64,000 nucleotides of DNA from Dryococelus australis (taxonomy: Eukaryota; Arthropoda; Insecta; Phasmatodea; Phasmatidae): contig CM056994.1 in NCBI GenBank assembly GCA_029891345.1, positions 227,408,991 through 227,472,990 on the forward strand, read 5' to 3'. The notes under the pieces were generated by a model, which searched no databases, had not been told where the DNA came from, and saw only the letters and a list, made by a program, of their open reading frames with translations. The translations under genes and the position numbers were made by a program. Shown here piece after piece: positions 5,560 to 64,000 of the stretch; the first letter of the stretch is position 1; the number at the start of each line of letters is the position of its first letter.

Positions 5560-5643
5560 GACATTCTCCCTGCAGACAAAGGTCGTGCCACTGCCATCCT
5601 AGACAAAGCAGACTATGCATCGCAATGGCGAATGTCCAGAAAT
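5560..5643 (+). pseudogene. Penelope-like reverse transcriptase fragment
   Basis: Twenty-eight codons read DILPADKGRATAILDKADYA and onward. This resembles the ADKG(N/R)ATVV motif near the N-terminus of Penelope-like element reverse transcriptases. Nothing else of such an element is visible, so this is a very short relic. The family assignment rests on this one motif. Confidence 0.45.
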
Positions 5644-7149
5644 GTCCATTTAATCATTCACCACCATTGCACTATTCATTCAAAGATCACACAAATAAAT
5701 TTAATAATGTTAGTCTGAATAAAATACAGTTTGCTACAAAATTTTTAAATATTTATTTAATGGATGAATTATTAAGGCAAATTTTAAAAATGTTACAAAT
5801 AAATTTGTTGGGGCCGAGCAATGGAGTTTCATTTTATTTAGGATAAAATATCAATGTCTGTACTCGCAATCTAGATATTAAAATATTTTCTTGTTCAAAC
5901 ATTACGTTTTCTGAAAAAATATATTGTGCTTGGTCAGTAGATTTATAAAACTATTCAGAATGTAATTCGTTAGAATAAATAATTAAATTTAACTAAAAAA
6001 GAAGAGAATTTTTTTCCTAATTTATGTTTATTAAGTGTCTTATGTTTCAGTGTTATGCGATGTATTAACATGTTTTTCGGTGTTATTTAGGTAATATCGC
6101 TATTAAAATGTCATTGTGTCTCTAGTAACTTGGCACATGCATTTACATCTTGCCTTCAAATACCAAATCAATCAATAATGCAGCCATTCCCTAGCACAAA
6201 ATTATTTTAGTAACGTTGTTCAGGAATTCATATTTTTGACTTTATCAATTTGTAGTCAAGTAAAGTTGACAGTTATGACGCCATACTCTTTTCGTGAAAA
6301 TACAATGTCAAAATTTTTCTGTGGAGCTATACGTGAAGTTGATTGTTGTTCACTCACTGGGAAGATTCTCTACTTATTTTTATTCAGAAAACATATTATT
6401 TTCTAATATTCTGGCGGCGATAGCAATGAAAGCATAGCATGAAACGTGGAGTTTATGTATTATTCCTTGTTCTTATAGCGAAAGACCTGTTACAAATACG
6501 TTTACGTGACACGACTCAACGTGAAAAAAATTATTTAGGGGCCATAGTATTTTAGAAGTAAACTATTTAACAATATTCTGAAAACAAATAGAGGTATACG
6601 TGGGAGCAGATGGAAGTACACATTTGAAAAATTGACTCACGTTTCGTCAGGGGTGTAGGGAGGGGGACTACCTACACCCTCTGGCTACTCCCCTGCTTCG
6701 ATAGTAGGTTCCTTAGTGGCGTGACAGCTGGCTGGCAAGCAGGTTCCGAGATGCTGGCTGCCGAACGCCATTCCAATATGCTGTTGGCCATGGGCAACCA
6801 TTTATCTGGTGTGTGCAGCTGGAGTTGACAGTGTAAGCGTCTGCTTCACCCCCGTCTTCTCAAGTACTGTGCGGCATAGTATAATGTGCTTGATGTTTGT
6901 GAATACTACTGGGCGCGGTGAAAGGTGGGTGCATGTGTGAGAGTGTTGGTGAAGGCGGTGTGCTTCTTACACAGCACGCATGCCAATCAGTCAGTCCTCG
7001 TGTGCCGCCGAGCACGCCCGACTGTGAAGTCTGCATGCAGACTGGTGAACGTCATAGACAGCTCAAATAAGCAGGAACGAGCTCGGCGTACTTTATTACA
7101 CGATACCTGCAACGAGTTCGGTCAAGCGTTGGACTGTGGCGCAAAATTC
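5644..7149. other. Non-coding sequence with a small inverted repeat
   Basis: Mostly AT-rich up to 6600. At 6651-6692 GGGTGTAGG and CCTACACCC form a short hairpin. The 6700-7150 stretch is GC-richer and open on the plus strand for 150 codons into the following SINE, without recognisable protein similarity. Confidence 0.45.
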
Positions 7150-24700: not shown

Positions 24701-27700
24701 TCTTCAACATAGTTACATTTTTTTTCAAATGGAAGAATGCTTATTCAAATCAAGATAATAGATCTAGAGGAGTTTAGAATATCAATGATGTTTTCGCAGG
24801 ATTCTAGTTTATCGTGCTATCATGATATGAAGGTGCAGAATGCGTAGTTATCACGCCACCCCCTCTTACGATCGCACGGGACTTCACATGCGGATTTACA
24901 GCAACAGCAGCTAGAACATTATTTTCACCCTCTTCTTTTGTCTCTCGTTTGTTTCTCTCATTTTCGAGATGTAACACTTATCATTTCCGTGATTGTTTAA
25001 AGCGTGAGGGAGTGAAGAGATTAGTGTGGCTCTTGAGAGCCCGACGAGGGTGATTGAGGTGAGTATGGAGCAATGCCAGATTGAGAGGGCGGGGGAAACA
25101 GGAAATCCACAAGAAAATTGGTTAAAGAGATTCGCAAATAATTGTCGAGATGATTTATGTATATTGGGATATCGTTCAGCGTACGCATTACAAGAACGAA
25201 CAGCATTCTCCCTACATTCGCTATAGATCATAAGCATGTCAGCTTTTTCCGCATTAGTAAATACAATCTTCCAGCACGTCCTACGTCTAGATAGTATGAA
25301 ATATCGCAAAGCACTGACAAGGAAGTCCCAATGCAGTCACTGTAAAGTAAACATAATCTAAACACACGTACGAACATCGTAGCCTAGTAAGGAAGCAGTT
25401 AAATGGAGCAGATAACTGTCGGTATTTAAAATTACCGTATTACGATAGCACGTAAAGTACTTGTACTATATTCCTGCACAAAAGACATTGATATTAAAAT
25501 TTCCTCTAGTTTTGTTTTCTTGACGTGAATAAGCACTGTAACATTTAAAAAACATTAACATTAACTCTCTTCAAGAAATATATATTCTAATAAGTATTAA
25601 AATATGTGTTTGGGCTGCAATTATGAGCCCTTGTCTGAACTGCGATTCTGTGAAATCAGTACAACAGTACTTTATATTTACGAAATATTTGCGGTGCAAA
25701 TTTCAGGTGTATCATCTTCTATTTTTTTGAGTAAACAAAATATGAAAAGGAACAAAATATATATATTTTTTCCAGCTAGCAAAATATACGCTTGAGAAAC
25801 AAACTATGGGTTGGTCCAAAAGGAAGATAAGACTGTCAACAAAAAAATTTGTTATATCAACTGTATATATTTGGTTGGTTACTCATTTTACTGCCTTCAT
25901 TCGGAAATACAGCTCGAGAGTTTGTTTTCATTTTTGTGACAATTACGAAAGTAACAGTGTTAGTGAATTTATTGATGTTAAATAATGTTATAAAAGCCCT
26001 GACAAAATCAGTTTAACAGGAATCTAAAAAGTAAAGCTATAAAACTTTAAATATATTTATATGTGCATGTAGTCCAGTCTTTAAACTGTATGCAAAGTGG
26101 ACCAGAATCCATGTGCCAAACTCCAGGAGGTATTTCCCTTTGTAAAATAAGATGGGGTATTCATTGACAACACCATCATGTAGCGAATATTAAGGGACGA
26201 GCGCAGTGTTGAAAATCGAATTTTGAAATGAATAAATGTAAATATTGCAGGAAGTACCTGAGATGGAACAACCAAAATCGGAATGGTGTTCCACGAATCG
26301 CAGATCGTACATCTGTGTAAATTTGGTTGCTCAAATCATCCTCCTTCATTACGTAAGTAGGGGTAGTCACCTTCTTTTCGTAGGGAACTTTGGAACACTA
26401 TGTGGTAAAGAAAACGTCGGTTCCCATTATAACCCACCATGAAAAAATGAAGACGAAAGGCCCTCTTGTCCGAACTCGCTCCGGTGAAACATTTTGGAGA
26501 AAATGCCACTCAGAATGTCGATGGTGCGATGTAAACCTGCGGGTTTAGGCAACCCATCTGTTACTCTCGCCATGCTTGTAATAGTTTATGTAAATGAGGA
26601 CAAGTGTAGGGAACAAGGAACGGAGTGCAGATATATCAGTACATGATACATATGTACATAGTACGTATTTATTAATGGCAGCATTTACAACAACTGTTCA
26701 AAATGCCGTCCCCAACTTCAATACACAAATGGCAACAGCAGATCAACGTTGGCCTGGACCCATGAATAAATGTCTGGTATGATGCGTACGGAACTAAATT
26801 CAGCTATCACACGTGCGACGAGATCTTTCTCAATAGCCACAGGTAGATAAAGCGTCGACATGACCCCATAAAAATAAATCCAGTGGAGTCAGGTTTGGAG
26901 ATCGGACCGGCCAATGGATGGGCCCACCATTCGGCAATCCAGTCGCCTGGAAATGCGACTTCAATATGGCGGCATACGGCCGCAGGAAAACGTGGTGGTG
27001 CCCCCATCATGCTAAAACCACATGGTGTGGCGAATGCAATATGTGCTTCGTCCAGCAAACCTAGCAATACCGCCTGCAAGAACGTCAGGTAGTGGGCTCC
27101 ACTGAGGCGGCCGGGCAGCAAATAAGGCCCCAACAAGTGATCGTTGACAATACTTGGCCCACATGTTGACATTGTAGAGCACTTGGTTGCCCATGGATGT
27201 GGAGGAGATTAGTGTGCGTCCAGACGAGGCTGTTCCTCCTGTTGATGATTTCATCCCTGGTGAAATTGACCTTATCTGTGAAGAGAATAATCAATATGAA
27301 GTTTGGACGTACATTGTTTCCATGAGGTAACCATTCGCAGAATGTAACACGTAGCACGTAATCATGTACGCCAAGAACGTAGACTTTCCTTTGAATGGTG
27401 AGGGATGCATACTCGCAGAATTCGCAGGATCGTTGCAATGGCTAACATCTATACCGCCGTCCACAGCCCGTGAACAAACAGACGGTTCCTGCCGCACACG
27501 GAGAAGCACGCCTTCGTTAAATGCCACCTTTCGCTTTGTCCGTAGTCCCCCATCATTCGGCCTCGTCACTGTTGTTGAGCCTTCATCCCGCAATCTCTAA
27601 TGTAACCGTACATCTGTCGCATGGGAGGGTTGAAGTCACGCTGGGTAGCGCAGCCAGTACAGCTCCACTGCTTACCTTGAATTCATGTTGGCTGTTCCGT

Positions 27701-30700
27701 ACATGAAGCGCATGTCAGCCAACTTCGCTCGCGTAAGAAGTTCCATGCTTCCACAACCAGCTGAGGCACATGCTGACTTGCCAACAGCCTAGGCCACCTC
27801 CACGCAAGCACCGATTACCCCCTCACGTGTTTCTTCCGTCAAATGCGTGGCGCAATTGGTTAGTGTATTGCCTACCTCTGCAGGGCAACAACACACCTTC
27901 GACATTTTGAGGGGAATTACCTCGAAAACGGTTCACGGAGCGAGTTCGGACAAGAGGACGTTTTGTCTTAATTGTGCCACAGGGGCATAGTGGATCTCGA
28001 CGTTTTCTTTACTGCTTAGTTTTCCAAAGTTCCTTGCGAAAAGAGGGCGACTACCCCTACTTACGCAATGAAGGGGGACGATTTAACCAACCAAATAGAC
28101 ACTGATTTTCAATCTGTGACTCGTGAAACACAAATATGATATTGGTTGCTCCATCTCAAGTACTTCCTGCAATAATACATTTATGAATTTCAAAATTCTA
28201 TTTTCAACGCCGCGTATTTTCCACGAGGAATCACCGCCTGGTGTTTGGCACATGAATTCTGGTCCTCGTTGTATATGAAAACATTCTGATTTTATCTGTA
28301 GTCACTTTATTTGAGGTTGCTAAGGCACGGTCCTCGGGCGCCGGTGATTTTTTCGTTCGAATCACGTTTGGGCTTCCATTTCTATTTATATCAACGGAAT
28401 CCCTTTAATGTACGTAGAGCCAAACAAATATTTAGTTGCAGTAACCAAATCTTTTTTTTGGGTAAACAAACACAACAAAATAATTTGGTTTCGACAACAA
28501 AATATTTCATTGCCACTATAAAAACAAATAATTTGGTTACATCAAACAAACTTTGCTTGATTAAGAGAAATACTTTTTTCTCAGTGTGCTTTTCCCATCC
28601 TGCTTAATAATGCTAGCGTAAATTACCCTCACACCAAGCAGTAATTTTGAAGAGTAAGTCAGTGTTAGTTAGTTTGGAAGCATGTAATTTGAAAATTTTA
28701 TGGGATATAATATAATTTTGGAGTATGATTCGACGGTTGCGAGTTTGAGTAACGACACTTTCCTCTGAGAGGTAATGAATTGTCCTGAGAAAGGTTGTGC
28801 ACTGGAGGTTTAAAATGTGAAGTAAATGCTTAATGTTTACTTGCTAGTGCAATGGCGTGGCTGGGTTTTTCAAGAGCTCCCGAGTATTGCTTTTTCTTGG
28901 ACATATCTTCTTCTGGTATGTAAAGGCAGGCAGAGTCCGTGTGTAGAAGGCGACAACACTTGAACAAAACTGCCCCTAGCGGTGCAGCGGCCTAGAGCTG
29001 CGCACGCGAATGAAAGCTGGCGTTCTTGCGTGTGCAGGAGAGAGCTCGGGAACGCGAACTCCAGTGACGTCACACAGGACCCAGCAGTTAACTGGAGACA
29101 GCCATCTGCAGCTGAAGGAGGCAGACTCCTGCCCACAGCTGACGGGGCGCATTCCCTGTCTGCCTGTGGTGGACCCTGAAAGTGAGTTGTGCCACCTTGC
29201 TTCACTTTATTGTGCAGCTGAACAATCCCGACTAACTTCTGCTGCCAAGTTTTTCACAAAAATGTTAATATTAAGACATTTATAAGACTTATAGTCCAAA
29301 GTGATTCCTGAGGACGGAATAAGATTTTTAAGTTAGAGCGGAAACGTGTGATGATTGGGAAATACAAAGTTCTGAAACCACTGCAATTAGTTCCGTTAAA
29401 TATTAATGAAAAGGGTACCCTTTAACTTTTTGTCATTTCGATAATAATGAGTGTTATCCATCAGAAATGCATTCAACCCTCTTATTTAATAAATTAGGCA
29501 CGAATTTCTCTAATGCATGCAAATTTAATGTTGTAGTTGAATGCTACCCTCTTTCTTACATTTATGCATAGTGATTAATATATCACCATTGAAATATATC
29601 TATGTATTGTGTGCCACAAAATGTGATGTAAAATAGTGGTAAAATATACATTATTTACGTTAAATTTTAAAAATCTGGCAGAAGTTTGCCGGTGATCGCG
29701 TGTCGTTATTTAAATAAATTTTATCCAGACACTCGATGTTTCACGTAACATTTGCTAGAATATTTTCTTAAAACTGAAGTTTCAATTCAATTTTGATGTT
29801 TTAATACCCTTTAGATTGAAGGTCGTAATGTGTTTTACAAAGTTTTCGCAAGATACCTGAAACTGTATTTTTTCTGTTACTAAGACAGTGTCTTGTTGTA
29901 TGAGGTACATATTTTGAGAACTTACAGCCTAAACATTGAACAAATAGCCACTAACGACTATCAGAAATGTTTTGTCGTAGCTAACGTATTATTGATGACT
30001 GTTTCTAAAAGAAAGATTTCTAGAATACTCTAGCAACAGACAACTATTAAGGAAACTTTTACAAACATTCTGTTTTAATAATCGTTATTCATTTCAGCAT
30101 GATATCTTGCGGCCTACTAAATTATACAAATTTTCGGTGCAAGCTGCATCGATTTAATAAAATATTTTCACACGAAGTTTAAGGAAGCTGTCTGTTTCTA
30201 AATGTAAGATGTAAAATAAAAACACAATTCCAGTGTCTTTTTAGCATTATTGCATTATGTCCTGCACGATCGTAACTTGCTAGAATAGAATATATAGTTA
30301 TTGAGTAAATTCACGACCATATATACTTATATTTATAAATGTTAAACTATTGTGAGCGTTAGATTTTTACTGCGTGCTAGCACGTGATAAGAAGAATTAA
30401 AGTATCGAAAATCGCAGTAAAATATGTCATAAAACATCTGTCAACATTTAATCTGTTGGCTTCTACATAAATTGCAGCCGGAAATTTGCTGATACTCAAA
30501 TTGAAATCATTTTTAGTAAAAGGCGGAATGGTAAAGCCCGTATCACAGCTCATAAATGAGGCAAGAAATGTTACGCAAAGCAAAACTAATACTCATACAG
30601 CTAAACCGTTCTCGCCAGGAGTGATTACTGAAGCGTAGCGTGCGGGGCGCTAGCGTTGATGTGTATCGTACTGTGCACACTATTACCTGTGTCGTTTATG

Positions 30701-33700: not shown

Positions 33701-36700
33701 TTTCATTTCAGTTTTAATACATTCATAGAACAGTTTGATGTAAAATGTTACGGATTTAGTTTTGATTATCGTGTGCCCTGTGAACCCGGTCCTCTTTTGG
33801 AGTTGCCACTGGTTATATATGCTGTGAATTTGTGACGACGTGTACAACTGCTTCACTTCCATACTTCTAGCTCCTGTTGTAACCGTTTGTAATGATACTG
33901 CGATTTTTTTTAAGGTAAGTTTGTGGTCGTTTGTAATTATGGTGTGTTGCTGTTCCCAGAACGATTATATCTGTTGTGTTGACTATTCAAAATTAAGCTA
34001 AATGATTGATTCCAGCGTTAGCTGGTGATGAGTGTAGTGGCTGTTCGTAACCATACAGTGTTAAAACAGTTAGCAGGCTGTTGTAATGTGCCGTGGTTGT
34101 CCGTTGCGATGCAGTGCTGTTGTTCCCAGGCTGGTGGTACATGTTGTGGTTGTTCGCGGTGACGCTGTGCTTCGTGTACAACTGCTGGGTCATCCCGCTG
34201 CGTTGCACGTTCCCCTACCAGACACCTGGCAACACCGCTGCGTGGTTCGCCCTCGACTACTCGGCAGACTTCGTCTACCTGCTCGATGTGACTCTGGTCA
34301 AGCCCAAGTTGTCCTTCCTGGACGACGGCTTCTGGGTTCAAGACCCTGCTCTCACTCGCAAGAACTACGTCAACAAATTCCAGTTCAAGGTGCATCCACG
34401 TTACCTTCGCTCTGTACATTCATGTAGGCAAAGGAAATATTTATAAATAAAAAATTTGAGATGGTCTAAGTTAGTTCTTGTCTATGCTCTTTCTTGGAAC
34501 ATTAGTTTATACAGAAGAATAAATTTATGCATACGCAAATATAAATATTCTGTAATTCTCCGTAAAAATTTAGAAAAATATGGCACAACTCGACATATGT
34601 TCCACTGATGCCACTTCATCATTTAACCGCAGAAGTCTTCTAGGCGTATCAGCAACGAAAATATTCGAAGTCGGCCGTGTTTCATTCTTCAGTCTGGTCT
34701 CCCGGTTGTGTAGTTGTACGATTGCACTTACATACATTATATATGGCTCTGCTTGTTACCAACTAACATTAGAGACACAGCTGGAACTGGGAGTTATAAA
34801 CGCGTGCATTATATACATGTCACCTTAATGTCACTGTGGTTCTGTAAAGGTTCCCCTCACGCCGCTTGTCAATTACCCCTTCTTACTTTTATTTTATATT
34901 TCCATTTAATTCTATGATATCATTTGTTTACATTAATTTTACCACAGGCTACACAGCCTCGTAAGAAAATGTTCTAGTTTCAATTACGGCACCGAACCAA
35001 ACTCGTCGGAATTCATTTTAATGTTCTTCTTGCAGTATGATGATACAGTTTTTGTTGTATCTCCGTGGACCCTGCACACACAATGATAATTAAAGTCTTG
35101 CTACGCGAGTTTTCCGTAAATTATTAGAAATAATAGTGTGTGTTCCACCATAATCGCCAAGAAACATTTTTCACTCTAATTTGTTTGATTTTCACTCAAA
35201 ACAGAATGGCGAGCATGTGACAGCACAAAATACACAATATTCATTCGACCTTAAAAATTAAGCTGTACCTTGTAACCATCCTGAAATGAACTCGTACACA
35301 CATGCTAAGCTGCCGTCTTTTCAGCAAGTGACACTATAGTTTCCTGCGTTCTGACTCACGTCAGCCGCCATCTGAGAACATCTCAAAGCCTACCTTACCC
35401 TAAAAAAAACATGAATGCTATACATTTTTGTCCTCCCATCAGGAACTTAATTTTTTGATAGAAACCTATAATTGATTTTCATACAGTACATGGGGACAAA
35501 ATTTTGTTTTAATAATTCATTTCACCACTTTCGTTGTGCCCTAATAAATAATTCGTTTTTTCCTTAAGCATTTGAAGTTTAGCTCTACGGTTCGTCTCGT
35601 TACGGGAAAGTTGATTTCATGCTATGTGCGTGGCAGTGTAGTGATCATAGAGTAAAGATGAGCTAGACTGATTCTTTGTCTTATGCACATGCACCCAACA
35701 CAGACCCATCCCAAACCAGCACAACTGTTGAAGTCACATGGTCAACAATGTTGATCACGTTTATTTGTATCTTTGTTTTCTAAGGACGAGTACTTTTATG
35801 TGAATCAAACAATTTTTCTTATTTAAATTTAATAAAACGTTATTAGAAATTAGTAAGAGGAAGAATAAAGGCATCTCAAAAACTTTGTTTATTGAACAGT
35901 AACATTAAATCCTATCCACGCCGTTTTAGATGGTCGTGTTGGTTGATAAGCAACCCAACGTTGGGACGCGGGGACTGGTTCTGAGAGATTACTCTACCGC
36001 ATACTCACTCTATGGCAGCGACTCTCTCTCTCTCTCTATCTCTCTCTGTCTCTCTCTCTCTCTCCTGCTACCGGACTCTAGGCTGACAGGAGGGATGGGC
36101 ATGTCCGCAGCGTCTGGCTCCGCCTCTGAACCGAGCTTCCGCAGTGTCGCGCTTCTCTTGCTGTTGCCACGAAAGGCATTTCTCAATTTTACTACACATT
36201 AAAAGACGAGAAGATATGCATACTTGTGTGTATTTTGGAATAAATAACAATATATTCAACCATATTGTGTCATACCTACTCCGGATTATGTGGCCGTTTC
36301 CCACTTCCAGTTCATAGGCCAAAATTTGAAATTGTCTTCATATCGCCTTAGTTACACATAGTATGTCTGTGCTTTATTTGATATATTTTTGAACATCAAG
36401 AAATGTATTTATGTTCTCAAGTTTGAATTCAACACAAATTTTATATATTGCCTGTTCATGGTAAACTAAGCACTTTTGAAAGCCATGTTTGAGATCTACT
36501 TACATGCACATTGTGTATACTTCCGCCATATAAACTCAACACTGCAATGTGCCTGATTACTTTATTCGTCCGTCGGCTAAGTGAAACTTTGGAATTATTA
36601 TAAATGTAAATGTTTTAAAAAATGTTCTCATTCTTACACCTATATGCATTAAAACGATGGGAAGCGAAGGAAATAAATCCATTATTCACGAATTTTTATC

Positions 36701-41969: not shown

Positions 41970-44900
41970 GCCTCAGAGGCTTGTTATATAAATAAGTGTT
42001 AAAGTACATCCATATGAGATAACTTTAACGCTCACTTGAAGATTTATATCAGTTATCACACAAAAGGAACATTTTAAAATATAAAGAGCCAAGTACACTA
42101 GTGTCGGGACAGTGAGTGCGTACAAATAACCTCAAACCAAGAGGTCAAATAACTAATAATATGTAAGGAAGGCACCCTTACTACGGACAGTTGAACTAAA
42201 CACGATAGCCTTCCAGATTTTCTGTTTATAATAGGAATAATGTAAGTGGAACAGGTAATATTTTCCTTGATATATTACCAAGGTTTCCACTACCAATCTC
42301 TTATAAATGATATTAGTGTTTACAGTTATGTCTAATCACTTTAAAAATATAGCATAATGCTATTTTTCTTAAAGAAGAAACTTTAAAAGGATATTATTAA
42401 CTGTAAATCAACCATAAGAAGAACCGTGTGCACAATACCATGTTGGGACACCTGGAAACGAGTTATTATATATGTAAATACTTCATTTACGAAGGGGCAT
42501 AGTTTACAATATTGATCCAACATTCATGCAAATAATTGTACTATACAATATACCACCAGCTTAATAATAACCTCCACGAGGTACTAGCAATTCTCAGTTA
42601 TCAAATAAGGTGTTGTGTTACAATCTCTGTAAATATTGTAAACTGGTTTAAGATATAAGATTCACACATGTAGAGTATGTACAAATCCTAGGCGTTAGAG
42701 ATATTTAGTTATTTCAAGTTAACAAGTTTCTTCTTACCAGCAACTGATTGTATCAAATGAGTTGAAGAAAATAGTTTAGTAGTGATACTTTTATTCGTTA
42801 CTGTAGATATAATACCCCTTAGACAAGTCAAGAATATGCAATCTACAAGATCATATTTTCACAGCTAGAGCATGACATCACATATAACTACCTTACTTCA
42901 ACATATGTAAATCAACAGTTGGTAGCGGCCAATATCCGCTCACCCCCCCCCCCCTTCCCAAAGCTCACCCTCGTCTCGCACCAACGTCAACCAAGACGTC
43001 GACCGGCCTCCGTGTGAAGCACTTTTCCCGTGTGTTAGTTCACCGACTCGAACGGAACATGAAGTGGATCACAAACATGCTTGCCACTACTTGGCACAAC
43101 TTTCCTACTGCACTCAACCACAGAAATATTTCGGACCTACTCTTCAAGTAATTAATACTCTTCACTATATCTCCTTATCTACAACTTCAGAATATTTTCT
43201 ACCAACTGACAGTCTCTTATAATCATCCCCCGGTCTTCTTCTTAATTTCTAAAATATCTAATACATTTCTTTGGCATCTCTCCAGAGCTGGGGACAGCTC
43301 TTTTCATCACTCGGGGGGGGGGGGGGGGGGGTAGAATGTTACGAAAACCCCGTCGAGCACCCTGTTTCTAAATACTCCTGTTTACATCGCAAGTAAGCAA
43401 CCGAGGACACATATCAGTTTCTAAACCTCAAAAACCAAATACGGAACCAGAATTGCTATCAGTAAACTACCAAAGGAATGCGCCGAGGACAACGGAATAT
43501 GTGAGTCCGGCAAACTAAGTAAACTTAGAAGTAAGCACAACAAACAATCCTTCGGCAAACTCCACCCACGGAGTACGACGGGGACCAATCACAATATTTT
43601 ACGTCACTAACAGACGTGGTGGGGTGAGAAGTGTGGACGGAGCCACGAGGCCCAGGGAAGACTCAGTCGACGGTGTGGCAGCGAGCAGCGCGGCCAAGTG
43701 TCCAGGCAGCGGCGGCGGAGCCAGAGTGTCCAGGGTGCGAGACCTGGTGAGTCCTTCTGCCATGTATTAACTTAGTCATTCTGAACTCCTTCTTCCCTTC
43801 TTCCCTCCTCTCCAGTGGCCTCCATCGATTCAGATTTTTGTAATTGTAAGAGGTTGACTCTAGCCTAACTTTAATTACATTTATTTCTTATCATTTAATT
43901 CACCTACTTCCACTTCATATCCCTCTATCTTCTACGTTTATAGTCTTCAGCCGAGGATAATAACACTGGGTGTAGCAGAGTTTACGATATTCTGACAGGC
44001 AGGTGACCGTTACACTTGGTGCCATGGCAACTTCCACTCTGTTTATTTTCACCACGATATGAATCGGATCCCGAAAAGCGGAAAAGTGCACTGTAAAAAA
44101 AATTTCTGATAATCTTCCTAAACTCTAATGGAAGTTTTTAACCTGTACAGTGTATGGAAATAGTAATACGTGTCAGGCTGAAAATATGGGAATGTTCAGC
44201 ATCGCTACCATACAGAGTTGGGGACATCCCCACGCATTTGACTCTTTCCTGAGCAACCGTAGGAAAGTGACCATGCATGTATGGGAAAATATTTTACCAT
44301 TCGCACTTTGTCACTGTACGTATACACTGATATGGTAAATTTAAAGACTGTTCATGAAAAAGTGAGCGCTTTAGAAATGAACATTTGAAAAAAGTCACTG
44401 GCCCTACATCCATGTATTTTAATGGGCGCACTGAGTGACATTCGCCCAGTAAAGTTAGTAACGATAGAGGGAAAGTAGTTCCATATCTTAACGTCGAATA
44501 AAAAGTGTTAGGTAACATTTTATAATAAATTAAAATTTTTTTCTTTCACTTTCCGTTTATTTTAATGCATCGAAGTGTAAAAAATGAGCAGATTTTAAAG
44601 CATTTACTTTATTAATAAATTCACATTTGCATTCGACCGACGCATAAATAAAGTGATTAGGCCATGATAATGCTATTTTTACATAGGGCTAAGGAACACA
44701 CAACGGGTTTACAAGTAGATCTTAAGCAGGACTTTTAAATGTGCTCATTTTACCGTGAACAGCCTATACAAATAATATTTTAGTGTGTGAATGAGAATCG
44801 CAGGCCCAGAGAGACGGTGTGTATTAGCGAGGAGAGAGGACTGTGGTCGCGTTGCTGCAGGTGCAGACGTTCTGGGAGTGCTACAACCGCCTGGACAGCA

Positions 44901-47900
44901 TGCTGGCGTCGCCGTACATCGTGCGCATGGTGCGCACGCTAACCTACATGCTTTACCTGATCCACCTCAACGCCTGCGCCTACTACGCCTTCTCCGCGTG
45001 GCAAGGGCTTGGCGCCAACGGCTGGGTTTTCAGCGGCAGCGGCAGCCCGTCAGTATATACACCGTCGCCTCTCGTTCGTCTCGCCTTGTCTCGCCTTGTC
45101 TCCTTGCACGACGCGACTCGCATTCATTTCATATACGCACTTTGGCGTAGAAACTCCCAGTCCCCCTCTTCACGATCGTGTACATGTTGCAAATTAGGGA
45201 TATTTATGGTCGGTGCTGTACACGGGAAATAACCAGAGCTCGGTGTGTTGAGTGTACTCATTTTGAAGAGTGAGCGAGTGAAGAGATTTGGGCGGCTCTT
45301 AACAGTGAGGTCTGGGGAGCCGATGAGGGTGATTGACGTGAATATGGAACGGCGCTGGAATGAAAGAGTGGGGGGAACGGGAAATCCCCGAGTAAACACG
45401 CCGACCAACGGCATCGTCCGGCACGATTCCCGCTTGCGAAAATCCGGTGACGTGGCCGGAGATTGAATCCGGTTCGCTTTGGTGGGAGGTGAGAGTTATA
45501 ATCGCTCAGCCACCGTGACCCCCACTCATTTTGAAAAATATGATTTGCCAATGCTTGTGCGCCTCACGTCTGTGAATGGTTGGTGCTGATAACATAGAGC
45601 ACGCAGCACATTATGTATTAGTTGTGAGAAGTACACCCGATCCAAATGAGCACACACCAAAATATTTCACGATTGCTTCACTTGAGATCATGAATTAAAT
45701 CGGGACCGAACGTGTTAAAATTAATCTGCATGAAATTAAGAAAAACTTAAATTCTTCGACAGAGTGTTTACAAAAAATTTGTATAAAATTACTGAATGCC
45801 TTTAGCAGACGCCGGAAATCGTTTTCTTAGTGTACATAAAGCGCTGTTAGATAACTGTCATAGTTGGAAAAGCACGCTAAATTGAAATAAAATTTCTCAG
45901 ACTTTTTTTGCGTAAAGATTCTGCGACTATTTGCACAGCAAAATTCTTTAGTTCACATCCACTAACGTGATTGGATAAATTAAATTGCCACTCGTCTTCA
46001 GCGTCTGCTTGCCAATTACAGACGTACAGTGCCGGGGTAACTTACTTCCGAATGGCCCAGTCAGGCGAGACAATGTCTTCCCACAGAGTCATGCGGTCGG
46101 CAACCACAGGAAAGTTGCAGATGTGCGCGTAGAATATTGAAGACTGTCTTGCGTTTAATCAGGTGTTCCTAGGTATACACAAAATATTGCACAATAGTGA
46201 AAGTAGACAATCTCTTTATATATGTATCTACGCATAAAAGCTGATTACCTACTACAATGGTAAAATGGAGACGTGTAAGTTATGTAATATATCTTGATCA
46301 TTTATAAACACGTGTCTGGAAGAAAGAATGTTTAAAGGAAATAAGATACATGATTTCCGGCATCTAATAAGGTTACATATTACTGCTTAATAAAATTATA
46401 TCTCCTATTAAGAATAACTATTGTCAGTACACTTCGGAAAGAAAAACTATGAGGGCACATTCCTGTTCTTAGGTATATGTATGTGTGACCCTTAAATATT
46501 TTCAACTTCTGTACTAACACTAACACCTAGTGCCTAAAAGGGCACCCAACTTTTATAGTTTTGAACCACACTGAATGCTTATTCTCCAAATGAAAATGCT
46601 TCAATATGTTTAAGATTTTATGTAATTAAACTATTAAGTCGATTTTAATCTAATTACATATGGTAATATTTAATGTGATAGTTAAATTTCCTTTCAATAA
46701 CAAGTTATGCCAGCTTAAGCCAACAGAAAGCAATGCAGGAAACAGAAACTTTTTCTGGGAACTTATAGCACGCTACTTGTGACAGTTTGTGCTGGTTCCG
46801 CAAATGAAGACAAGAGCAACCTATTTTAATTATCCTTTTACGCATGCAATTTTCGATAACTAATAATAGTAGCATATTAAGAGCTCTTTTATTAAATGCG
46901 TATTTTGTAGAGAAACTGCCACACTATAATTCTTTTTCGTAATAATGTTTGTATGTTTTCGTCTAGTCTGACCTTATTATGTCAGACTATATAAATATCT
47001 TGATAGTTTTCTTAGTGTCGTAATATATCATGAAGATATTTCTAAAGTAACTTTTGTGAAAACACGCAGAAAAATAATGCGGAACATTAAGTTTTTTGTG
47101 GGGCATATGAAAGTTTGTTTATTATTCCTCAAACAGTTATATATTTGTATTTGAAAATCCAAGTTCTTAGCAGTAACGTAAATTATTTTCTTCATTTGTC
47201 ATATTCGGATTACTTGATATTAGTAATCAACAAATGAAATAACGTTTCGGTTAGTTCCACAATCCAAAATTAGCAATAATACTTCGTAACTAATCTGTGA
47301 TCACAACTGCAGCGTTGTGTACATGGAAATATTGCTTAAATATTTCAGTCACTACCTTCAGCAAGTATGCTGAAGAACATAAGTTGAGAGTTGGTACCAG
47401 TGTAGTTTGGAGTTTAGTTGAGTCACAAGTTCGTGTCAGTTTTAGCATGTCGGTACAAAACGTGCTATTAAAACAAATTATACAACGACATACTAGCGAA
47501 GCTAGTATGAAATTCAAACAGTATATTTTACAGTATATGACGAGATACAAATATCTAGGTTTCGACAAACAACTCAATTTATTTAACTTTTAAATCATGA
47601 AATAATTATAACACTTTATTGGAATTAAAAATAAAGCAGAATTAGTTAACTTGAAAACGTGCACGCAGTTATGGAGACTGAAATGGCACTAACTTGAAAA
47701 AAACAATTCTTATGAATACTGTCACCTGGTATTCAAGTTTTAGTAACATAGTTCAATACGATTAAAAAATAAGTTTAAACCTACACTGCTAGTCTTGGAA
47801 ATCACTACACCAGGTGTCATCCATTTGTAATAAAATCAAGAACATATACAGTGCCAGTTATGCTTGTAGGACCATACAATGGACTGGAAAGGCAGAAATA

Positions 47901-57150: not shown

Positions 57151-57276
57151 AGCATTTTGCACTTAACCACAACCCTCAGCTGCAAGAGCAGATGAGTCAT
57201 CAGCGACTTGGGGCGACACGTTTACAACACGCCACCATGTGCCTTTGTTTTCACTCTCAGTTGATTTCAAGCAGCC

Positions 57277-59406
57277 ATGCAAGTCAAGCACACGATGAGA
57301 GAAGAGTTCGAATGTAAAATACGTGAACTGTTGGGTGACAAGGCTGATAGATCCCTTTTAATGAGCAATGACCGCTACAATGAGATAGTGGAAGAAATTA
57401 AAGCAGCGAGGGATAAAAGAAAGAATGGAATACCATTATCTGCTAAAGACTATCTTTGTCTTAAACACTTCGATGTTATTTATATTGGCGATAATGTAAG
57501 GTTGATTAATGCAACAGAAGAATCTTACTCAGAAATCAAAATTATTGTCGAGTCGGGGAAATGTTTGACATTATTGAATGTGCACATCATAAATTAGGCC
57601 ATAAAAAAGAAAAAGCAATGGATGTACAATTAAAAAGAAAATATTCCAATATAACAAGAGACTTAATAAATGCATATTAAAACTTCCGTGAGCCCTGAAT
57701 TTTGAAGAGAAAGGCAAAAGGAAAAGGGGTTGTTGTAAAACCAATGGTGATGTCTGAGCTGAATTTGCGATGCCAGGTAAATGACAACTTTGTTAAATTA
57801 TTTATAACATTCTGTATATTTAAATTATTTATTATAATTATATTAACTTTTTCATTTTGTCGCTTGAAATTTTCATTATAATCGTTGCCTACTCCTCTAA
57901 CGCTGCCATCAGAATTTCTAAATGGGCGATATGTTTATTGTTATTTACTGAAATGTTTCATTTTCCTATACATATAGGGCAGCGGTCATCTGATTGTATT
58001 TTTTTGCGAGCCTGAATTAATGGTCTGTATGCTATCCCATCATTACTCATTGTTGCAGAAGTTATTGTTTTTATTATTATTCGCAACTAGATCTCATCAA
58101 TATGCAAAGTGAACCTGATGGAGACTACAAGTTTATCCTGAACTACCAAGATTACTTGACAAAGTTCGTCGTCTTACGGCCACAGAAAACGAAGACAGCA
58201 GATGAAGTTGCAGATGATATTTTAGATATATTTTGTTTGCTTGGAGCTCCAAACGTCCTTCATGGGGACAATGGGAGTGAATTGTGTAATAAGGTACGGT
58301 AGCTGTTATAAATAATTCTAATTTTATTACCTAAGTATCATTTATGATAATTTAATTTATAGGCTATTTAAATTTATAAAAATAATAAATAGTTTTTTTT
58401 TTTATTTTTCAGGTGATAGAAGCTTTGGTGGCTAAATGGAACGGAATTAATACCTTTCACGGAAAACCACGCCACTCTCAAAGCCAAGGATCCGTTGAAC
58501 GAGCGAATTAAGACGTCCGAGACAGTTTGATAGCTTGGATGAAAGACAACAATACTTCAAGTTGGCTGTATGGTCTTCGAATTGTTCAAAACTCAAAGAA
58601 TTGCAGTTACCATTCTGGAATTAAGAGAACTCCTTATGAAGCTTTGTTAGGCATTCCACAGAAAAATGGGTTGCTTGATTCCTGCTTGCTATCTTATATA
58701 GCTGGAAACATTGACACGGAAGAACAACTTGAAGAATATTTCTATAATCTAACAAAAAAATTTTGATGAGACACACCGAAAATGTAGATGAAGCTAAACA
58801 CATGTGAAATTAATAACCAACAAATTTAATCACCAATGGAAACTGAGGAGAGGGTTAGAGCTTGCATCGTTTGTGATCAACAGTTTGAAGAAGAAATATC
58901 CTGCTTCGAATGTGCTGAATACATTCATTCGACATGCACTTCAGCACCACAGTCCGAAATTCCGTTATGTCATCTTCTTGCAAATAAATCGGTTATTGAG
59001 AACTCTCGCAAACACTGCAAACGTGGATTACAGGAACATGCTGAGATGATGCTTCAGACATCCAGGAAGAAGTTTCCACCTGCCTCTACTGGTGATAATA
59101 CTTTAGTTAGTATTCCCGATGTGGATCGCGGGCGACTTGCTCCCCGAAATGTGCTTGCCGTGATAATGGAAGAAGTAGAGCCTAATTTATTTTCTATTGG
59201 AACTAAGCATGGCAAGCTTGAAAAACTATACTCAATAAACGAATTTTCAGCTAGCTCCTAATAAATCCCTGGAAATAAGTGATTTCCCAGATGGGAATGT
59301 GACTGTCCGACAGGAAGCTATGTTATCATGAGGGTCTAAACAAGGTTTTGTGAGATACGGCTGCTCAAAAGGATGCAATAACAAATCGTGTTCTTGTGCC
59401 AAATAG
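57277..59406 (+). pseudogene. KRBA2/Ginger-like rve integrase pseudogene
   Basis: Plus-strand blocks in order: an N-terminal helical part (MREEFECKIRELLGDKADRS from 57295, then NGIPLSAKDYLCLKHFDVIY); a His-rich zinc segment in a shifted frame (CAHHKLGHKKEKAMD, about 57577-57620); and the integrase core (MQSEPDGDYKFILNYQDYLT, GDNG near 58267, QGSVERAN near 58485-58508). The first catalytic Asp falls at the 58090 junction, the second in GDNG, and Glu is 58497-58499. Then come KRTPYEALLG, a C4HC-like zinc finger (CIVCDQQ...CFECAEYIHSTC), a VDRGRLAPRNVLAV block and a Cys-rich tail (YGCSKGCNNKSCSCAK) to a stop at 59406. GT-AG introns are possible at 57778-58090 and 58294-58411. Breaks: a frameshift near 57560, stops at 57678 and 58509, a frame change near 58760, and further stops near 59262 and 59328. 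Related to KRAB-A-domain-2-like and Ginger transposon integrases; inactive. Confidence 0.8.
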
Positions 59407-61207
59407 AAAAAAAAACTGTAATTCTAAATACCACAACAGTAGTTCATGTAAGAATATGTAAATAGGTACCAAACATAAATATTATGCTTAAATTTTCCCT
59501 TGTGTTTTTATAAGTTTCACTAGTCTACATTTTATTTTTCTGGTACAATTTTTAGGCTATGATTTTCTAATTGTATTAACCGAAAGTGTTTTGAAATTTG
59601 TTGTATTTTTCTGTTGTAAGAAATTTTGAATGAAAATGTATAAGCCTATTTTAATTTCTGCAAGACTAAAAGATAATAACATAATAAAACAAAGTAATAC
59701 AAACCATAAAAAAAGAAACTAATGAAAACTAAAACACACCACACTTTGTGGGTAAACGCAAAATACTCGAAACTTGTGGTTGACGGGCAAGGGCATCGGG
59801 CATCGGAGCCAGAGCCGAGTGACGTCGCCATGTTGTTACATCACCGTATGCCATCTTGGACCCATATAAACTTGACCTTGACCCCATTGACCCCTGAGCC
59901 AAAAACAAAAAAATAATGTACAAGAATTCATAAAAAATGATAAAAAATTTATAATAAATAATTTGACTAAAAATCGTTTAAAAATACAAAATCGAAAAAA
60001 AAAGTTTTAAAAAAATAAATTACAAAAAATTTAATTAAAAATATTGTTAAAAATTAATTATTAAAAAATCTAAATTAAAATCTTTTAGAAATTTATTATT
60101 TAAAATTTTACTAAATAATTACTCAAAATTGTAGTCACCAAGCGGCCATTTTCCCTAAAAATTTCCCTTTTTCCTTAAAATTTAGTTTTTTCCTTAAAAA
60201 TTTGAAAAATACCGAAAAAAATCATTAAAACTTATGAAAAATTTATTTTAAAAACTTACATTTCTGAAGGTCCTCCCAGCCTCACATCCAGCAGAGGACT
60301 GGCTAACTCACTCTCACCCCCCCCCCCAACTATACTCATTCTATCAAGCTGAAATATTTATTTTTTGTACATTATTTGTTATGTTACTGGAGGTGGTCAT
60401 ATTTCTTTTTTATCGTTCTTCATTGGTTTATATGTTACTGGAGGTAGCCATACATTTTTTTTCGTTAATTTGTTTATATATTTTACTGGAGGCTGCCATG
60501 AAGGGAGGAAGCCATCTTGCTAGGTGCAGTCCTCCATGTTTGATTTTTTATTGTCATTTGTTTTATAGTTTACATCTCACATTCATGTGACTACTATATT
60601 AGGTTTCATATGTTTTCATCACTTTTGTACTATTAGGTGGTAGCCATATTGGTTTATGTGTTTAAAGTATTGGTTGTACTGTCGGCCTCCACCAATGTTT
60701 TTCATTGGCTAATTAGTGTTTAGGGGGCAAGAAACCACCATCATTCCACTGATTACTCAGTTGAGTTCGACTCCCTCCATGCTGGATTATATTTTCTAAA
60801 CGCTTAAGTAGTAATGATTATGTCGCCTGCTATCGGCCTGTAACGAATGGTGACATTGACCATTCCTGCGAAGTATTTAAATTTACCATTATTTTCTTAA
60901 ATGAAAGTGTTTTTATTAAAATATTTCTTACATATAAAGCAGGGAGGTTTTTTTTTTAAATGAAACAGATAATATCATTTTAAATAAAATTTATTGTACA
61001 CGTAATAAAATGTACAGGTTTAATAATCTTTTTCGACGTTCACCGCCCGATTTCTGCCTTTGCGACCCAGGAATTGAAGCGGGCAGGGAAACATCACCAC
61101 TTGAAGTACGCCCTTAATTTACATCGTTTCAGCAACTTCTCGAACCTTGAAGCTGGCGATGCTCGAAGACGACTAACTAGTTATAGTGAGCGAACAATCA
61201 GCTGTTC
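59407..61207. other. AT-rich spacer between integrase and capsid relics
   Basis: No gene recognised. 59930-60250 is extremely A/T-rich low-complexity sequence. A C run lies at about 60318-60327. Confidence 0.5.
60377..60505. repeat. Tandem repeat, about 45-50 base unit, three copies
   Basis: Three units share TATRTTACTGGAGGTGGTCAT / TATGTTACTGGAGGTAGCCAT / TATTTTACTGGAGGCTGCCAT followed by T-rich spacers. Confidence 0.75.
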
Positions 61208-62390
61208 TCACGACATTATTTTGATGGTCTTGTTACGGCAATTGTAAGATACAAGTCGGTCGTGAAGTATCAGGCAGAATGTGTTCCTGTTGGCAGGAAT
61301 ATTTCCATGTGTGAATTAGGTTCTGCAGTCGATCACGTTGCAGGTAATATGCTCTACCTGTTTACTCACAACGAATAACATGAGCGGGGCCAAATTCTTG
61401 AACGTATCAGGGCTCAATATCGGAGTTGAATGCGTCTAAAATATGCAATTTGGAATTGAGTGTACATATGATATGCCAGAAGATACTGTCCATTTACAAA
61501 CTTCGTGTTCATATCTACCTATGGGTTGCTTTCGCTATTCAAAAATACTTAAACATTTTCCATTTAACATTTGTCTAACTACGAATGGCTCGATCTTACA
61601 TTGTGCTGTCTTCTGGTCTGTATCCCAACAATGATGTACCTCAGTTTCTCAGAAGAAAAGCTGAAATTCACCATCCAATTGATGCGCTGGCTTGCTGGCA
61701 ATCCGGGGTATGTCTCCAGACTCCATGACCAGAAAGCCACATCGATGTTTTTACCATCTTCCACATTCTGCAACATTTGTACTCATTCTGGCGTGCTCAA
61801 CTGCACATGAGGCAACATCCATTCGGTAGACTGTAGTTTTAGTTCCACCACCACCAGGTTTTCTCCCGTATCCAAGATGGTGTCCACGTGCTTATTGGAG
61901 AGTATTTTCACCAGCTCCTGCTTCAAATGGAAGATAATGCATTTGTAGTCTTCGGCAAATCCCAATATCATGGAGAGCGGAACACATACTTCGAACCTGC
62001 CTTTGGCATACCTGGGAACACTGTAGCCCTCTTTGATTCCCCAGCCTGCCATCTTGGCTGGAGACAGCTCATTCAGCATGAGCGAAAGGTAATTTTTGAT
62101 CGTTGATGTTATGCCCGCATCTCGCGACTTGTCCACCTGGGCACCATTGAGAAAGTTGTCGATGCGGTCGATCAGGTGAAGAATTCCATTGCTCGTTATT
62201 TTCATAGATGCTGGATTAGACCCATATTCTTTTGTCAGAATCCTCCTGATTTGCAGGAAAGACTGGCATAAAAGAGTGCAGATATCTTGGTGTTGGACTG
62301 CTATCCGAACGTTTGACGGTAGTGTATATGGACCGTTCAGGAACGGCTGGTACGCATTAAGTTCCACCTTCGTTATGCTATCTTCGAAAA
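61208..62390 (-). pseudogene. Double-jelly-roll capsid-like pseudogene
   Basis: Minus strand, roughly 390 codons long including breaks, the usual length of double-jelly-roll-like proteins found in insect genomes and attributed to adintovirus/Maverick-type elements. Visible in order: an N-terminal ELNAYQPF block followed by RIAVQHQDICTL, then NGAQVDKSRDAGITSTIKNY, GRFEVCVPLSMILGFAEDYK, and a WMLPHVQLS block near 61800. The rest is in other frames: RYIIVGIQTRR near 61600, and a C-terminal block FCLILHDRLVSYN near 61240-61280 before a stop at 61208. Frameshifts near 61785 and 61580 and several stops make it inactive. It would be a virion shell protein by family; no working product is predicted. 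Confidence 0.75.
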
Positions 62391-62556
62391 TGGCTGGCTA
62401 TTATTAGATTAGGAAATTGTCCACGGTGATCGACCTCGTAGCCGAGACTGCAGAGGACAATCTCGCTAGTGCATGTTAATTCCTTGGAGACCTGTGGAGT
62501 ACTGATTGTAGGTTTTGCATGAAACATTATTTTATAGCCTCTGGTCGGCGTAGATC

Positions 62557-63098
62557 TTATTCCCATCTTCTCAAATGCAGGCGTAGTGTGATTCCTTCGT
62601 TTCGAAAGTTGGCCAACTCTCTGTGCTGGTCGACGACAATCACGACCACCTTGTGTGCTCGCTTTGCGATGACAGGAACGTAAATAACGCTTTGCAGTAC
62701 CACTGCTAGTTTATAACCTGGAGGGACCATAGGCGAAAATTCATGCAGCGTATTGCTTGGTCTGCTGTCGAGGTACGTGCCACTCACTAAATTGCGGGTT
62801 ATTCGTATCAATTTGACTGGCAAAATGTTTACAGGCTACGACAACACGTGTGTTTTTCTAGCTTCATAGATGCAAGGCTCAAACCCCAGCATCTGTCCAA
62901 TAGTATCCGGTTTCGTGAAGCGATATCTTTACTGCATCTGATAACACTCTTCAGAGTATTGGGATCCCCACATAGTTCAAATTCTTTGTCGGCGGGCAGC
63001 GAATATTCAATGTAACTTGCAATGTTGTCTATTTCATAAGAGTCTATGGGTAGTGAGACTTCGTGGGAAACATTGCCACTTTTTACGAGGTACAGCAT
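62557..63098 (-). pseudogene. Second virion-type gene, broken
   Basis: Two minus-strand frames: 63098-62829 (starts MLYLVKSGNVSHEVSLPIDS, with ASYIEYSLPADKEFELCG) and 62823-62557 (contains RNLVSGTYLDSRPSNTLHEF, PPGYKLAVV, NFRNEGITLRLHL). One frameshift near 62830 separates them. The gene lies just upstream of the capsid-like gene on the same strand, the position where related insect elements carry a conserved companion protein, possibly a minor capsid or penton-like jelly roll. That role is inference. The intact length would be about 180 residues. Confidence 0.6.
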
Positions 63099-63224
63099 GC
63101 AGTTTTTTCATCACTGTTCGGTATCGCATTGTAGGTTTGAAAATCGACAATGGCTATGCTCCATCCCCCCTCCACGTCAAGTGGCGGAAAATTTAATGTA
63201 CGCAGCTCGGAGCTATGGCCCGTC

Positions 63225-63999
63225 AAGGTAAGTATTATCGACATAACTGATTGTTTCCTTATGGTGTATAGCCTTTTTATACAATTACTTGCACGAGCGA
63301 ACCAGGAAGCGAAGGCACAAATCTCTACATTTCCACATGTTAAGCAGGTACTCTGTTTAGAAATTGTATGCTATTTTGGGATATCTCAAGTGCTTGTGCA
63401 ATTCGGGCAGAGGATGCAAATTCCCAAAACTATCATGATAGTCTGCTTGTTTACCCTTTTTTTATGTACGCTACCCAGTGTGTGCCGGGCCCTTCTGTCG
63501 TATCCAGATTAATTAAAGTCCATTTGTGTCTCTTGGATTTAGCAGGCAAATCATCTCTCATAAAAATTCCTCTAAAATCAGGTTTTTTCAATTTGCGTGG
63601 AAACAGTTCTAAGTCCACATTAGTGAGTGCTCGTTTCGGTAGAGATTTCATTATTGATTCTTCCTGCTGCATCACTTTTGCACACTTCCACTTCCTACTG
63701 GGTAGGGCCTTAGGTGAGGCCTTTCCTGTTTTTTTTTTTACCCATGGCGACTGTTTCCATGTTTGCATTGTGTCTATGTTCCTCGGAAAACTGCTTTCGT
63801 TCGTTCGATGCTGTGTTGACAGTTCGGGCAATGCCACTTGTAGCTCCGATTAGGCCTCCGAGGGCGCCGAGTGTCGACAAAATCAATGGAAAAATCTACC
63901 GATAGATATTTTCTTAGCCTTACAGACTTTTCTTCTTTTTGTACCTGCTTTTATTTTCGTTTGTTCCTTTCTTTTGCTCTTATCACCCATGCCTATCAT
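63225..63999 (-). pseudogene. Adenain-type cysteine protease with basic/hydrophobic leader, broken
   Basis: Minus strand, reading down from the window edge. A Lys/Arg-rich start (KSKRKEQTKIKAGTKRRKVC) is followed in another frame by a hydrophobic Gly-rich helix (ILSTLGALGGLIGATSGIAR, near 63830-63885), as in small basic minor core proteins of adenovirus-like elements. Then 63837-63451 has RALTNVDLELF, DFRGIFMRDDLP, NLDTTEGPGTHWVAYI. GTHWV carries the catalytic His (codon 63478-63480) of adenain/C48-like proteases. Past 63451 the frame shifts: FGNLHPLPE near 63400 and a degraded LCLRFL segment near 63310, where the catalytic Cys would lie. Frameshifts and stops make it inactive. The cluster continues past 64000. 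Confidence 0.7.
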
Positions 64000-64000
64000 C

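What the first reader, a model, noticed from the sequence alone, without database searches (positions are those of the whole stretch)
61208..64000. Inactive adintovirus/Maverick-like gene cluster at the right edge
Three consecutive minus-strand relics appear in order: a basic/hydrophobic leader with an adenain-like protease (GTHWV), a companion virion-type protein, and a double-jelly-roll capsid-like protein of near-normal length. Each is broken by frameshifts and stops. The order and shared strand argue for one endogenous viral/transposon insertion rather than chance. Motifs are seen directly; family names come from known insect elements of this kind.
Basis: partly seen in the sequence, partly recalled or inferred. 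Interest (0 to 1): 0.75.

Follow-up and report, generated by a model that had tools for sequence, protein, structure and literature searches.

The report
Dead polymerase-less Maverick in stick insect
The right edge of this stick-insect window holds a decayed copy of a common virus-like jumping element that carries virus-shell genes but no DNA polymerase of its own, while a separate element nearby carries a polymerase, which suggests a virus-like gene set split over two elements.

Summary
But it is not one adintovirus with its polymerase further on. Host sequence past 64000 gives the whole element: about 8.4 kb between long inverted repeats (window 59761 to about 68183), adding a PLA2-like gene, an ATPase-like gene and one unknown gene. 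No PolB was found inside. Sister copies carry the same cassette, some with a Maverick-type integrase and 6-bp target duplications; the window copy's integrase is deleted. The host is Dryococelus australis. A PolB element about 4 kb to the right has its own inverted repeats and no detected capsid genes. In capped genome-wide hit lists, capsid and integrase co-locate (15 pairs), PolB and a neighbour gene co-locate (10 pairs), capsid and PolB do not, apart from the window's own pair. Best reading: a PolB-less Maverick relying on polymerase in trans, possibly half of a bipartite system. High-copy Mavericks in stick insects are already in print; I found no description of the split in the open-access papers searched.

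The parts
59761..61161 (.). left terminal inverted repeat; the outermost ~16 bases are decayed, so the outer end is approximate (the partner arm ends at about 68183 in window numbering, L009 4183)
   Evidence: blastn with L009 2653-4167, 72.5% over 1535 columns; terminus compared with sister copies
61043..61144 (-). remnant of the integrase C-terminal tail (codons 269-302) inside the left inverted repeat
   Evidence: tblastn with the L033 integrase ORF, 56% identity, 2.5e-5
61233..61361 (-). double-jelly-roll major capsid protein, C-terminal piece
   Evidence: similar piece at the same relative place in sister copies, 57-81% identity; no Pfam hit on its own
61579..61782 (-). double-jelly-roll major capsid protein, middle piece
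   Evidence: PF21738 4e-10
61783..62397 (-). double-jelly-roll major capsid protein, N-terminal piece (204 aa, no stop)
   Evidence: PF21738 9e-27; 39% identity to an Aphidius gifuensis protein
62557..62835 (-). penton-like minor capsid protein, C-terminal piece
   Evidence: similar pieces in the sister copies; penton fold of a homologue
62829..63107 (-). penton-like minor capsid protein, middle piece (part read in a shifted frame)
   Evidence: similar pieces in the sister copies
63083..63370 (-). penton-like minor capsid protein, N-terminal piece; the frame also runs over the end of the protease region
   Evidence: similar pieces in the sister copies
63451..63849 (-). adenain-like cysteine protease, broken, with GTHWV motif
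   Evidence: motif read directly; conserved in the sister copies; sister frame Peptidase_C5 E 0.05 only
63710..63895 (-). small hydrophobic/basic protein in an overlapping frame (protein-X-like, weak)
   Evidence: similar frame in 8 of 10 sister copies (not C2, C6); sister frame Adeno_PX E 0.035

Best explanation
The window holds one old, inactivated copy of a high-copy Maverick-type element of Dryococelus australis. The element is about 8 kb, with long terminal inverted repeats. It carries capsid, penton, protease, protein-X-like and PLA2-like genes on one strand and, divergently, an ATPase-like gene, an unknown ORF and, in the fuller copies, an rve integrase. No DNA polymerase was found in it. 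SHOWN: gene content, inverted repeats, 6-bp target duplications in some sister copies, integrase deletion in the window copy, and, in capped hit lists, linkage of capsid with integrase but not with PolB. INFERRED: the integrase inserted the element; copying was done in trans by a protein-primed PolB from a separate element family whose ends start with the same bases; the window copy was inserted by enzymes of other copies and then decayed. This reading covers two special cases, listed as rivals: a bipartite virus and a plain deletion derivative.
For: Inverted repeats bound an 8.4-kb element in the window, and 9 of 11 copies read have both arms. DJR, penton and protease are found in 11 of 11, ATPase-like in 10 of 11, PLA2-like in 9 of 11. 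Integrase: full or near-full in 4 of 11, first 59 codons in 1, deleted from the same left breakpoint in 4, undetermined in 2. L033 integrase ORF: rve 4.9e-8, above cut-off. Target duplications: TCTAAT/TCTAAT (C17), GTTATA/GTCATA (C3), AATAGC/CATAGC (C5), AACGAA/AACAAA (C4). PolB pieces hit inside 0 of 11 copies. Co-location in capped lists: DJR-integrase 15 pairs, all divergent at 4.4-5.5 kb; DJR-PolB only the window's own pair at 27.5 kb, outside the repeats. PolB-P1 10 pairs, all same strand; DJR-P1 only the window pair. Profiles of capsid-side genes find nothing inside the PolB element.
Against: No direct evidence of trans-replication. PolB identity rests on motifs read by eye plus PF03175 at only 0.19, and the one PolB piece searched had no homologue at E<=1e-3 in the protein database. 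PolB was sought in the copies with pieces of one PolB family only. Hit lists are capped (150 or 130 scored of thousands of candidates), so full PolB+capsid elements could exist unseen. The ten sister copies were not a random sample: three were ranks 2-4 in similarity to the window and the other seven were hits without a stop in the capsid piece. The window copy itself shows no clear target duplication, and target duplications were unclear in C12, C2 and C7 (L031). Searches with the inverted repeats, which could have revealed a PolB-bearing parent, did not complete.
Confidence: 0.62

Rival explanations
1. Bipartite virus-like system (a special case of the best reading): the capsid/integrase element and the PolB element are the two genome segments of one Maverick virus, co-replicated by PolB, inserted by the integrase and co-packaged.
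For: Complementary gene sets in two linkage groups; both families large and similarly diverged, 66-77% identity for the non-self hits listed; ends of both start AGTAGTA, and AGTAGTAGG in the PolB element's right end and in C3, C4, C7 (L031) and C12; the PolB element also has a 5-of-6 duplication; a second PolB copy shows no capsid-side gene over 8 kb.
Against: Past the first bases no similarity between the two repeats was found (blastn 1e-6 with the L011 part of the PolB repeat); other capsid copies end AGTAGTATG or AGTAGTATA; only one PolB element was read end to end, with a nested LTR-type element inside; no virion or expression data.
Confidence: 0.2
2. Ordinary internal-deletion derivative (the other special case): a one-molecule adintovirus/Maverick with PolB lost the polymerase in one master copy, and the capsid genes were carried along as passengers during one burst.
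For: Star-like tree of 14 copies with long terminal and short internal branches; integrase and protease change as expected without selection; C12, C3 and C5 share both breakpoints of an integrase deletion, so deletion forms do spread.
Against: Capsid (0.46) and ORFX (0.34) dN/dS lie below the neutral simulation ranges 0.70-1.03 and 0.59-1.06, though the capsid copies were chosen by protein similarity; none of the 11 copies read holds PolB, but no search for a PolB-bearing parent by its repeats could be made.
Confidence: 0.33
3. One reading: one endogenous adintovirus with PolB beyond the edge.
For: A PolB relic does lie about 27 kb to the right of the capsid gene on the same chromosome.
Against: Inverted repeats close the element at about 68183, before the PolB, which has its own inverted repeats.
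Confidence: 0.04
4. The breaks are sequencing indels and the genes are whole.
For: The assembly is from PacBio CLR reads and its authors warn of indel errors (PMC10268593, passages).
Against: The window copy is the most diverged of the 14 compared (mean nucleotide distance 0.145), its repeat arms are 72.5% alike, and most of the integrase is missing.
Confidence: 0.01

Closest known systems
Polinton/Maverick elements and adintoviruses (Eupolintoviridae)
   Same: DJR capsid, penton, adenain-like protease (weak by profile), ATPase-like gene, rve integrase with chromo-like tail (in sister copies), inverted repeats, 6-bp target duplication
   Different: About 8 kb instead of 15-20 kb (size from PMC4028283 passage) and no PolB found between the repeats; window copy also without most of the integrase
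Capsid-less Polintons (PMC4028283: nine elements without MCP also lacked protease and ATPase; passage)
   Same: A Polinton that has lost one of its two modules
   Different: Opposite loss: here the virion module is kept and the polymerase is missing. The neighbouring PolB element looks like the capsid-less kind, but no integrase was found in it either
Polinton-like viruses (PMC11071308 passage)
   Same: DJR capsid module without pPolB
   Different: Those mostly lack the rve integrase and have another replication protein; here the integrase is rve type and no other replication protein was recognised
High-copy Mavericks of stick insects (Timema cristinae 145,675 copies, 3.13% of genome; third most abundant in Clitarchus hookeri; PMC5691397 passage)
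   Same: Maverick abundance in the same insect order
   Different: The passage seen gives repeat counts, no gene anatomy and no PolB/capsid split
Bidnaviruses
   Same: Insect viruses with a Polinton-type PolB, some with several segments (PMC11071296 and PMC11071308 passages)
   Different: Their capsid is a parvovirus single jelly roll; here it is a DJR Maverick capsid

Membership tests
Adintovirus / Eupolintoviridae | PolB with N-terminal OTU-like domain (definition in PMC11071296, passage) | tested here: not met
   PolB pieces of the neighbouring element hit inside 0 of 11 copies; in C17 the 8.48 kb between the ends is largely taken up by the other genes and the repeats
Adintovirus / Eupolintoviridae | Hexon-type DJR capsid protein | tested here: met
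   PF21738 9e-27 in the window, 1.7e-88 over the whole domain in a sister copy; not compared with a reference adintovirus hexon
Adintovirus / Eupolintoviridae | rve integrase with C-terminal chromodomain | tested here: inconclusive
   rve 4.9e-8 in a sister copy, chromo only 0.046; window copy keeps only the tail
Polinton/Maverick | Terminal inverted repeats and 6-bp target duplication (the 6-bp figure is recalled) | tested here: met
   Both arms in 9 of 11 copies; duplications of at least 5 of 6 bases in 4 sister copies, 4 of 6 in C9, none clear in the window copy, C12, C2 and C7
[quoted passage not shown]
   No PolB hit inside; end-to-end lengths 7.3-8.7 kb in eight of the nine two-armed copies and 10.4 kb in C9, whose right arm is interrupted
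Polinton/Maverick | FtsK-like packaging ATPase | tested here: inconclusive
   Walker A and B-like motifs read by eye at L009 507-1021; no Pfam hit to an ATPase; found in 10 of 11 copies
Polinton/Maverick | Adenain-like cysteine protease | tested here: inconclusive
   GTHWV motif; Peptidase_C5 at E 0.05 in a sister copy
Polinton/Maverick | Penton-type minor capsid protein | tested here: met
Polinton-like virus | Mostly no rve integrase, and an alternative replication protein (PMC11071308 passage) | tested here: not met
   Full or near-full rve integrase in 4 of 11 copies; no alternative replication protein in the Pfam scans made of selected frames

The most novel reading that the evidence does not exclude
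The genome of Dryococelus australis carries the fossil record of a bipartite Maverick virus: one segment for capsid, packaging and integration, the other for PolB and unknown cysteine-rich proteins. The segments share AGTAGTA-type ends, each was amplified to a high copy number, and they were copied and packaged together.
Probability: 0.2. Interest if true: 0.85.

Novelty: new variant of a known kind. Interest (0 to 1): 0.55.

Why it matters
Polintons are defined as elements that encode their own polymerase. Loss of the capsid module has been described; keeping capsid, packaging and integration genes while the polymerase sits on another element would be the opposite case, and hard to explain unless the capsid genes did something during the spread. 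A genome with many copies of both halves makes it testable by comparison whether Mavericks travel as particles and whether their genomes can be multipartite. If the split turns out to be a plain deletion family, the finding is an ordinary relic in an order already known to be rich in Mavericks.

Tried and rejected
Searches of viral contigs with the DJR piece and with the DJR and penton alignments found no relative. PHROGs gave nothing convincing for the capsid-side pieces (best a holin family at 0.0099 for the small basic protein). No solved structure matched the DJR or a protease frame by sequence. Rfam and tRNA scans were empty. A protein search with one PolB piece gave no hit at E<=1e-3 among 61 candidates.

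A programmed frameshift in the penton gene was considered and rejected: in L032 one open frame of 250 aa (5415-6167) runs through the first two pieces and most of the third. Five sister copies (L019, L026, L029, L032, L033) have seven bases where the window has six; C3 and C17 read through that spot like the window.

The integrase relic at window 58021-59261 was considered as part of the element and rejected: it lies outside the left repeat, and its pieces had no hit at the sister copies except a 30% match of one piece to the L033 integrase.

One ancestral integrase deletion for all four integrase-less copies was considered and is not established: C12, C3 and C5 share both breakpoints, the window shares only the left one, and in the weakly supported tree the window groups with C6 and C2, not with C12, C3 and C5.

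Selection: the capsid dN/dS of 0.46 is below neutral simulation, but the copies were chosen by protein similarity and many for lack of stops, so I do not count it as proof. ORFX (0.34, nine copies) is less affected. Integrase (four copies) and protease (11) are within the neutral range.

Dating: repeat-arm divergence (27.5% in the window) and the coding terminal branch (0.096) disagree by almost twofold per arm, so I give no age.

The own-genome search tool was busy for most attempts. Never answered: the ATPase query, two inverted-repeat DNA queries, PF00078, PF03175, and a second DJR family (P0004).

Literature: searches for Polintons lacking PolB, Polintons in cockroaches or stick insects, Maverick in Timema and D. 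australis repeats listed no paper whose title or abstract describes a capsid-keeping, PolB-less Maverick. I saw listings and passages, not whole papers, and only open-access papers are held, so this is weak evidence of novelty.

Full report
1. Where it lies. The own-genome search places the window at G000:C2:227408991-227472990 of a 3.415-Gb, 646-contig assembly. A penton homologue returned by the protein search is PR048_007253 of Dryococelus australis on a contig of 376,236,745 bases, exactly the length of C2. The published assembly is 3.42 Gb in 17 major scaffolds with N50 262.27 Mb (PMC10268593, abstract in search listing and passages), and C4 here is 262,277,254 bases. [quoted passage not shown] A word search of that paper's main text finds no Maverick or Polinton; the passages seen call most repeats unclassifiable.

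3. The whole element. Reading 32.5 kb past the window shows an inverted repeat: window 59777-61161 against L009 2653-4167, 72.5% over 1535 columns. With the termini the element spans about 59761 to 68183, or 8.4 kb. Past 64000 it holds a PLA2-like gene (L009 3-212; 0.2 in this copy, 3.6e-12 to PF08398 in sister L032), a divergent ATPase-like gene (L009 507-1486; Walker-like motifs read by eye, no ATPase profile hit) and an unknown ORFX (L009 1944-2639). ORFX abuts the right repeat.

4. Sister copies. Besides the window I read 10 copies at letter level, so 11 in all. They are not a random sample: three are ranks 2-4 in similarity to the window, seven had no stop in the capsid piece. DJR, penton and protease are found in 11 of 11, the ATPase-like gene in 10 (not C6; only a short stretch in C15), PLA2-like in 9 (not C2, C6) and both repeat arms in 9 (not C6, C15). 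A 302-aa integrase ORF stands between ORFX and the right repeat in C4 (rve 4.9e-8, chromo 0.046). It is at or near full length also in C9, C7 (L031) and C17, present as its first 59 codons in C2, and absent but for the start and tail in the window, C12, C3 and C5; C6 and C15 are undetermined. The four integrase-less copies share one left breakpoint; three share the right one, and the window's lies 37 bases away. C12, C3 and C5 therefore look like one deletion form that spread. The window's deletion may be a relative of it or a separate event: in a weakly supported tree it groups with C6 and C2 instead. The C17 copy shows an exact 6-bp duplication (TCTAAT) at both ends; C3, C5 and C4 match at 5 of 6, C9 at 4 of 6; none is clear in the window copy, C12, C2 or C7.

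5. The missing polymerase. PolB pieces hit inside none of the 11 copies. The nearest PolB relic (L011 3911-7231; motifs read by eye, PF03175 only 0.19) lies in a second element whose own repeats run from L009 8242 to L035 719 (about 72.2-94.7 kb in window numbering), 84-86% alike, with near-duplication GGCAAT/GGTAAT and ends AGTGGTAGGG/AGTAGTAGGG. It contains an LTR-type insertion (L010 5770-9561) and unknown proteins P1, P2 and P4. Profiles of the capsid-side genes find nothing in it. A second PolB copy (L036, 8 kb) again shows P2, P4, P1 and the PolB start in that order, with no capsid-side hit by tblastn. The ends of capsid copies start AGTAGTAGG (C3, C4, C7, C12), AGTAGTACG (window right end), AGTAGTATG (C5, C17) or AGTAGTATA (C9); past the first bases no similarity to the PolB repeat was found.

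6. Genome-wide linkage. Own-genome searches scored 150 DJR hits of 12,319 candidates, 150 PolB of 9,956, 130 integrase of 33,015 and 150 P1 of 7,490. Candidates are not copies, and the lists are capped. Using positions only: DJR-integrase 15 pairs within 60 kb, all divergent at 4.4-5.5 kb; PolB-P1 10 pairs within 30 kb (one is the window region's own), all same strand; DJR-PolB 1 pair within 60 kb, the window's own at 27.5 kb outside the repeats; PolB-integrase 1 pair, 51 kb apart; DJR-P1 1 pair, again the window's own. If the lists were independent draws, the two linked pairings imply roughly 1,300 and 2,250 elements (150x130/15 and 150x150/10), and a DJR-PolB linkage of the same kind would have shown about 10-17 pairs. 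This is a rough estimate of mine; ranking by similarity breaks independence.

7. Decay and selection. Fourteen DJR copies form a star-like tree with terminal branches of 0.04-0.10; the window copy is the longest. Pairwise dN/dS medians are capsid 0.46 (14 copies), ORFX 0.34 (9), integrase 0.69 (4) and protease 0.80 (11). Neutral simulations with the transition/transversion ratio of the repeats give 0.70-1.03, 0.59-1.06, 0.56-1.34 and 0.65-1.08. Capsid and ORFX fall below, integrase and protease within. The capsid result is biased by how the copies were chosen. The assembly's CLR reads may add false frameshifts (PMC10268593 passage).

8. Mechanism. Shown: a repeat-bounded element with an rve integrase in some copies, duplicated targets in some, and a virion module without a detected polymerase. 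Inferred: integration by the integrase acting on AGTAGTA-type ends, copying by a PolB in trans, and insertion of the window copy by enzymes of other copies. Whether the capsid genes packaged the element is open.

9. Known and new. Mavericks are already reported as the most abundant repeat of Timema cristinae and third in Clitarchus hookeri (PMC5691397 passage). Capsid-less Polintons are known (PMC4028283 passage). By the definition in PMC11071296 (passage) this is not an adintovirus, because PolB was tested and not met; it works like a Maverick with its polymerase elsewhere. I rate it a new variant of a known kind. The window relic by itself is ordinary; the two-linkage-group pattern is what raises the interest.

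Noticed in passing
window 57265-59261 (+): Relic of an integrase gene (rve E 0.0012, below cut-off) followed by a zinc-finger-like stretch; it resembles KRBA2/Ginger-type integrase genes (label recalled). It lies just outside the left inverted repeat.
   Followed up: partly
L009 8242 to L035 719 (about 72.2-94.7 kb in window numbering): Second Maverick-type element with PolB and unknown proteins P1, P2 and P4, its own ~1.7-kb inverted repeats and a nested LTR-type element. P1 alone has 150 scored genomic hits, a cap, and no Pfam hit.
   Followed up: partly
L036 7190-7432 (+): Bro-N domain (PF02498, 2.3e-8) between two PolB pieces of a sister PolB element; insertion or gene of the element, not resolved.
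   Followed up: no
P0006: A DJR capsid protein of this insect-type family is filed under a Nitrososphaera (archaeal) MAG on a 1.4-kb contig; probably contamination.
   Followed up: no
window 34074-34446 and 44791-45232 (+): Frames that read like exons of a cyclic-nucleotide-gated channel (recognised by eye, not tested); the window may lie in a long-intron host gene.
   Followed up: no
window 26243-28174, 9909-16985, 24622-25655: Several inverted-repeat pairs of 94-193 nt, 81-84% complementary, probably other repeats.
   Followed up: no
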